From: Apoda limacodes
Taxonomy: Eukaryota; Arthropoda; Insecta; Lepidoptera; Limacodidae
Direction of reading: 5' to 3'
Length of the DNA stretch: 64,000 nt
Assembly: GCA_946406115.1 (NCBI GenBank)
Contig: OX291550.1
Location: 28,558,722 to 28,622,721, forward strand
The notes under the pieces were generated by a model that was given only the letters and a program-made list of their open reading frames with translations, searched no databases and had not been told where the DNA came from. This document shows, piece after piece, positions 33,951 through 63,048 of this stretch (position 1 is the stretch's first letter; each line of letters opens with the position of its first letter). The position numbers were made by a program, and so were the translations under genes.

Positions 33951-34082
33951 ATGTCCAAAAAGTTGATCGGTAGTAAAATTAGTGACACTACTAAAAGTAT
34001 TACGATATATCCCGCAGATCCCGCAGAATGTCCCTTCAGAGAATTTAGGGATCACGAACTAGGAGCAGAATACTGGGGGATG
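33951..34082 (+). CDS. Adgb: androglobin exon 1 (start codon)
   Basis: Residues 1-44. The ATG at 33951 is the first in this frame after upstream stops; no strong promoter motif is visible before it. The segment CPFREFRDHELGAEYW fits the conserved P.WPEWSE...EKWD stretch near the start of androglobins. Donor ATG|GTAAAT, phase 0. An upstream non-coding exon cannot be excluded (a tttatag acceptor-like site ends near 33889). Confidence 0.75.

Positions 34083-63048: not shown

What the first reader, a model, noticed from the sequence alone, without database searches (positions are those of the whole stretch)
33951..63048. Complete 5' two thirds of a lepidopteran androglobin gene
Eighteen exons hidden among transposons join in phase into 1,139 codons with the order calpain-like, beta-sandwich, split globin with IQ motif, beta-sandwich. 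That is the architecture of androglobin, and no exon was long enough to be obvious alone. The 17 phase-matched junctions come directly from the sequence; the family name rests on remembered vertebrate androglobin motifs.
Basis: partly seen in the sequence, partly recalled or inferred. Interest (0 to 1): 0.9.

Follow-up and report, generated by a model that had tools for sequence, protein, structure and literature searches.

The report
Lepidopteran androglobin with heme-less globin
This stretch of what is likely a moth or butterfly genome holds the first 18 of 27 predicted exons of androglobin, a protein likely built into the sperm tail, whose split globin part has lost the two residues that normally hold heme, as in all the lepidopteran copies compared here that cover those two positions, so it would not be expected to carry oxygen.

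Summary
Confirmed, with corrections. The 18 exons join into an open frame: exactly 1,139 codons if exon 2 starts at 34801, and 1,156 with the start at 34750 that relatives support. In each exon both other forward frames contain stops, 36 of 36. I extended the gene in the window's own assembly: 27 exons, 1,487 codons and a stop. A protein search gave 46 hits at E<=0.001, all from lepidopteran species, 14 with androglobin in the name shown. Androglobin domains II and IV and an IQ motif pass Pfam cut-offs; mammalian androglobins align over 1,222 columns, E 9.8e-38.

The parts
33951..34082 (+). exon 1, start codon
   Evidence: three relatives align from 34750
35657..35785 (+). exon 3, calpain-like part
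38087..38216 (+). exon 4, calpain-like part
42688..42893 (+). exon 5, calpain-like part, followed by a GC donor
47652..47787 (+). exon 6, calpain-like part
48194..48330 (+). exon 7
48411..48555 (+). exon 8
51155..51312 (+). exon 9
51768..51824 (+). exon 10, linker; no tblastn match of its own, rests on splice sites and phase; junction 10 is weakly supported
52573..52674 (+). exon 11; weak tblastn match (one relative, E 0.011)
55211..55593 (+). exon 12; androglobin domain II begins at 55346
56167..56382 (+). exon 13; end of domain II (56248) and the E-helix part of the globin insert; position E7 aligned to Trp670 at 56276-56278
59944..60244 (+). exon 14; F to H part of the globin insert; position F8 aligned to Tyr707 at 59948-59950
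60596..60850 (+). exon 15; IQ calmodulin-binding motif at 60752-60811
61472..61815 (+). exon 16; A-B part of the globin insert, then androglobin domain IV from 61595
62407..62683 (+). exon 17; end of domain IV match at 62506
62872..63048 (+). exon 18, last exon inside the window; exons 19-27 lie downstream at G000:C11 28626986-28636861

Best explanation
The window holds exons 1-18 of a predicted 27-exon androglobin gene, whose protein likely serves as a structural, calmodulin-binding subunit of the central apparatus of the sperm tail, with a permuted globin insert that has lost both heme-ligand residues and so would not bind heme in the usual way. Shown: the open, phase-matched exon chain, its extension to a stop codon, the androglobin II and IV domains, the IQ motif, co-linearity with mammalian androglobins, and Trp and Tyr at the positions aligned with the two ligands. 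Predicted: a calpain-like protease core and beta-sandwich domains that match calpains and FAP42, a subunit of the C1 central-pair microtubule. Inferred: location in the C1b projection of the axoneme, calmodulin loading through the IQ motif, and a scaffold rather than oxygen role for the globin insert. Protease activity was not tested.
Against: No RNA, protein localisation or mutant was examined. The structure is of a relative, not of the joined window protein, and a first model from 26 lepidopteran rows was poor (pLDDT 55.9). The fold searches did not test the globin insert on its own. The place of E7 is not firm: two alignments give Trp670, a third (global) gives Phe674. 33 of 38 rows have a Gln within five residues of F8, 5 of 38 a His near E7 and 2 of 38 a His near F8. 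A third stretch labelled linker (306-397) is 62% identical, as high as domain IV, and the window's own C-H part is only 51% identical to relatives, against 63% in domain II. Full-length ADGB did not bind calmodulin under basal conditions in cell culture, only the isolated globin domain did; and in mouse Adgb is tied to SEPT10, the manchette and the annulus (PMC9249397, passages). Loss of Adgb in Tetrahymena altered motility only slightly (PMC8175508, passages). No X-box (RFX site) with at most one mismatch lies in the 2.5 kb upstream of the start codon. C1b partner genes could not be searched in this genome.
Confidence: 0.62

Rival explanations
1. The globin insert still binds heme, for example through the tyrosine at F8 or a shifted ligand, and senses oxygen or redox state in sperm.
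For: F8 is Tyr in all 46 of 48 rows that cover it rather than a scatter of residues, and tyrosine can bind ferric heme in other proteins (recalled). The 2026 androglobin paper suggests O2- or redox-sensitive functions for the globin domain (PMC13331133, discussion read).
Against: No His or Gln at the aligned E7 and no His at F8; 0 of 15 lepidopteran rows match Pfam Globin at E<=0.1, 12 of 12 mammals do; PMC7457136 judges hexapod androglobin globin domains non-functional (passages).
Confidence: 0.1
2. The protein acts mainly as a calmodulin-regulated cysteine protease, cleaving septins as proposed for mouse.
Against: The Pfam calpain match is weak (E 0.22 in the 1,084-aa model; not listed at E<=1 for the full protein) and spans profile positions 84-116, past the region where I recall the catalytic cysteine. 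The catalytic triad could not be placed.
Confidence: 0.15
3. The globin insert, or the whole gene, is a decaying relic.
For: Both heme ligands are gone, the window's branch is long (0.74 against a median of 0.27) and its C-H part is only 51% identical to relatives.
Against: 27 exons without a stop or frameshift; the globin parts have 0-1% gaps and 56-59% identity among 38 Lepidoptera, against 7-9% gaps and 45-48% in two linkers.
Confidence: 0.04
4. The exon chain is a chance join of unrelated open frames.
For: No RNA reads; four junctions are weakly supported.
Against: 36 of 36 other forward frames closed and relatives align along the chain to its end.
Confidence: 0.01

Closest known systems
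Predicted lepidopteran androglobins (e.g. Epargyreus clarus P0001, Colias croceus P0003, Loxostege sticticalis P0006)
   Same: Similar length (1,487 against 1,489-1,495 aa), same domain order, Trp and Tyr at the aligned E7 and F8 positions.
   Different: The window protein is 53-54% identical to these three, while among the 15 Lepidoptera of A1 the others are 42-77% identical to Colias, 68-70% for Epargyreus, Aphomia, Melitaea and Loxostege. With Plutella set as outgroup it branches next, before the other 36 rows.
Mammalian androglobin (ADGB)
   Same: Calpain-like part, domain II, permuted globin split by an IQ motif, domain IV, C-terminal tail; aligned over 1,222 columns.
   Different: The 12 mammals used keep E7 Gln (9) or His (3) and F8 His (12); Lepidoptera have Trp and Tyr.
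FAP42, C1 central pair of Chlamydomonas cilia (PDB 7n6g, 7sqc)
   Different: FAP42 is 2,540 residues long in the PDB sequence; nothing in these calls shows a globin insert or IQ motif in it; orthologues reported only in green algae (PMC8175508, passages).
Calpains, including calpain-7
   Different: Weak sequence similarity (Pfam Peptidase_C2 E 0.22), plus globin, IQ and androglobin IV parts. No calpain-7 sequence was compared directly.

Membership tests
androglobin | Androglobin domains II and IV (PF22068, PF22069) | tested here: met
   4.3e-7 and 9.1e-24, both above cut-off
androglobin | IQ motif between domain II and domain IV | tested here: met
   PF00612 at residues 858-877, 27.9 bits against a cut-off of 20.3
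androglobin | co-linearity with vertebrate androglobin over most of its length | tested here: met
   A1 against A3: probability 99.95, 1,222 columns; with the window protein leading the lepidopteran profile: 99.94, 1,093 columns. Only mammals stood for vertebrates
androglobin | N-terminal calpain-like part | tested here: met
   fold match of a relative's model; the sequence match alone is below cut-off
androglobin | permuted globin insert with its A-B part after the IQ motif | tested here: inconclusive
   co-linear position and predicted helices at P0032 642-740 and 851-885; no Pfam Globin match in 15 Lepidoptera; the insert was not folded alone
heme-binding globin | proximal His at F8 | tested here: not met
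   Tyr in the window and in 46 of 48 rows, 2 gaps; Tyr in all three alignments
heme-binding globin | distal His or Gln at E7 | tested here: not met
   Trp in two alignments, Phe in the third; the Phe column holds Phe (41), Tyr (4) or a gap (3) in 48 rows
active calpain protease | Cys-His-Asn catalytic triad | tested here: inconclusive
   hhalign to a recalled calpain-1 core gave an insignificant alignment of 94 columns (probability 0.4%) not reaching the triad
central-apparatus C1b subunit | presence in the axoneme | not testable with these tools
   needs localisation or cryo-electron tomography

The most novel reading that the evidence does not exclude
Lepidoptera have fixed a heme-less 'pseudoglobin': an early ancestor exchanged both ligands of the androglobin globin insert for a Trp-Tyr pair, and selection has since kept the insert as a calmodulin-gated structural part of the central-pair C1b projection in sperm. 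If so, the lasting function of the animal androglobin globin domain is mechanical, not oxygen or redox sensing.
Probability: 0.4. Interest if true: 0.55.

Novelty: new member of a known kind. Interest (0 to 1): 0.36.

Why it matters
The gene itself is an expected orthologue. Its use is as a natural experiment. A 2026 paper suggests that gaining the globin domain may have given androglobin O2- or redox-sensitive functions (PMC13331133, discussion read). Lepidoptera keep the same domain order, an IQ motif and a constrained globin insert without the heme ligands, so what remains there can be tested without heme in a group with a laboratory model (Bombyx mori). Cell-culture data already show that calmodulin binding by the isolated globin domain does not need the two ligands (PMC9249397, passages). 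The structural match to FAP42 past the calpain part also supports the earlier suggestion that the two proteins hold equivalent places in the central apparatus (PMC8175508, passages).

Tried and rejected
Tried without result or with partial result: Pfam on seven single open frames found androglobin parts in three (one above cut-off, two below) and an IQ motif in one more. PDB search with the exon 16 frame alone: nothing. An exon scan between exons 3 and 5 missed exon 4; it was then found from relatives. A trimmed lepidopteran profile (A2) meant to reach other insects found only Lepidoptera (47 hits), so hexapods outside Lepidoptera were not compared. A profile search for the two small missing exons was inconclusive (after an empty run); they were picked from two and three candidates in splice-site and phase scans and checked by alignment with four relatives. 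RFX X-box upstream: none with at most one mismatch in 2.5 kb. No tRNA and no Rfam match at gathering threshold in the window. The fold searches list no globin chain among the 50 rows shown each; this is no evidence against a globin fold, since the insert is a small part of a 1,146-residue model.

Considered and rejected: calpain-7 orthologue (the window protein carries androglobin II and IV; one Papilio entry bears the calpain-7 name but has both domains); chance exon chain; pseudogene. The catalytic triad could not be placed, so neither an active nor a dead protease is claimed.

Not answered: the genome search returned 'busy'; only one search was answered. So retrocopies of the full protein, CFAP69 (PF21049, asked for), SPEF2 (PF22946) and classical globins (PF00042) in this genome remain unsearched; the first two accessions are recalled.

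Full report
What was checked. The finding names 18 exons between 33951 and 63048 that join in phase into 1,139 codons. I read most of the sequence, placed splice sites by eye and joined the exons in a script. With exon 2 at 34750 the chain has 3,468 bases and 1,156 codons without a stop; with exon 2 at 34801 it has exactly 1,139. Three relatives align from 34750, so the longer version is preferred. For each of the 18 exons only the frame used is open; all 36 other forward frames have stops. Coding GC is 45% against 35% in the introns. One intron, the fifth, starts with GC instead of GT.

How firm the borders are. I compared 38 lepidopteran relatives, those of 48 with over 90% cover, P0042 left out. 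At 13 of 17 junctions 31 to 38 of them have exactly the same length across ten residues. At junction 2 most have one residue more, at junction 3 one fewer; junction 10 lies in a low-complexity linker (0 of 38) and junction 14 in a variable stretch (11 of 38). The acceptors of exons 2 and 3 are weak by eye. Exon 10 has no tblastn match of its own and exon 11 a weak one. RNA would settle these.

The rest of the gene. The window lies in an 800 Mb assembly of 31 contigs, at C11:28558722-28622721. I fetched 50 kb downstream and 20 kb upstream. tblastn with three relatives located seven more exons; two more, of 41 and 40 bases, were picked by splice sites and phase. The full model has 27 exons, 1,487 codons and a stop, ends 14,140 bases past the window, and aligns with four relatives to the last residues. 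The window thus holds 18 of 27 exons and 78% of the codons. Androglobin domain IV matches only one place in the assembly, by a six-frame search that scores only its best candidates.

Identity. The protein search, with the preliminary 1,084-aa model, gave 46 proteins at E<=0.001, all from lepidopteran species (order by genus name, from my own knowledge), with 37-57% identity over the aligned part. A profile of four relatives gave 47, two of them new, again all Lepidoptera. Pfam finds androglobin II, IQ and androglobin IV in order, all above cut-off, and FAP42_B2 below cut-off. At E<=0.1, 15 of 15 relatives match II, IV and IQ, 11 FAP42_B2, 2 the calpain family and none Globin. Twelve mammalian androglobins match II, IV, V, calpain, FAP42_B2 and Globin in 12 of 12 and IQ in 6 of 12; the human Globin and IQ matches are below Pfam's cut-offs. 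The lepidopteran and mammalian profiles align over 1,222 columns, probability 99.95. In a tree of the window and 37 of the 48 relatives, with Plutella set as outgroup, the window branches next, on an end branch of 0.74 against a median of 0.27 (quick method, LG+G4).

The globin part. Human Gln792 and His824 were taken as E7 and F8; the positions were chosen by comparison with recalled myoglobin, and PMC9249397 names GlnE7 and HisF8 as the heme-coordinating residues without numbers in the passages I saw. In a joint alignment F8 is Tyr707 in the window and Tyr in 46 of 48 lepidopteran rows, with two gaps; E7 is Trp670 and Trp in 45 of 48, with two gaps and one Arg; the 12 mammals have Gln (9) or His (3) at E7 and His (12) at F8. 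The Arg stands in P0035, a model that lacks F8; all 44 rows that cover both positions have Trp and Tyr. Profile alignment gives the same in local mode; in global mode F8 is again Tyr but E7 becomes Phe674. So F8 is firm and E7 is not His or Gln in any version. A Gln does lie within five residues of F8 in 33 of 38 rows, and a His near E7 in 5 and near F8 in 2 of 38. Prothmann et al. 2020 already report that all hexapod androglobins they studied lack both residues and call the domain degenerated (PMC7457136, passages); their Data Sheet S2 on these domains could not be read here and may show the same residues.

Constraint. Mean pairwise identity among the 38 rows is 59% for the C-H part and 56% for A-B, against 68% for the calpain-like part, 81% for the segment after it, 65% for domain II, 69% for the IQ segment, 62% for domain IV and 58% for the start of domain V; of three stretches labelled linkers, two have 45-48% and one 62%. 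Gaps are 1% and 0% in the two globin parts against 7-9% in the two variable linkers. The window itself is 51% identical to relatives in the C-H part, against 63% in domain II. I found no paper describing a fixed Trp-Tyr pair in searches for androglobin with insect, Lepidoptera, Bombyx, and heme plus 'degenerat' (open-access library only; most hits seen as listings, a few as passages).

What stays open. Protease activity: the triad could not be placed. The globin fold was not tested on the insert alone. Expression, partner genes and hexapods outside Lepidoptera were not examined.

Verdict. The observation and the name are right. The gene is an ordinary orthologue of a family already present in public databases for dozens of Lepidoptera. 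Its value lies in the conserved but heme-ligand-free globin insert, which makes the role of that domain testable.

Noticed in passing
window 43782-46769 (+): A 996-codon open frame with endonuclease and reverse transcriptase domains (RVT_1 E 2.4e-38), a non-LTR retrotransposon with one uninterrupted frame lying inside intron 5 of the androglobin gene, same strand.
   Followed up: partly
window 53546-54859: Tandem pair of 600-700-base stretches, 91-94% identical in three aligned blocks, inside intron 11; by eye they read like retrotransposon 3' ends, with similar pieces at 40976-41566 and on the - strand at 27185-27520; no Pfam match.
   Followed up: partly
window 9519-9854 (+): Reverse transcriptase fragment (RVT_1 E 9.4e-8) upstream of the gene.
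   Followed up: no
window 39784-40059 (+): Open frame that by eye resembles a GIY-YIG nuclease of a Penelope-like element; no Pfam match at E<=0.01.
   Followed up: no
window 11541-11965: Short tandem repeat read as SQAAVAPT units on one strand, open in several frames; no Pfam match for the frame tested.
   Followed up: no
window 42894-42899: GC donor at intron 5 (AAG|gcatgg), the only non-GT donor among the 17 introns in the window.
   Followed up: partly
protein P0039 (Papilio machaon): Named Calpain-7-like in a public source but carries androglobin domains II and IV, so it looks misnamed.
   Followed up: no
proteins P0047 (Cydia fagiglandana) and P0035 (Leptidea sinapis): Public gene models with a gap at the F8 position, P0047 apparently without the SYQPDL motif; probably incomplete predictions.
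   Followed up: partly
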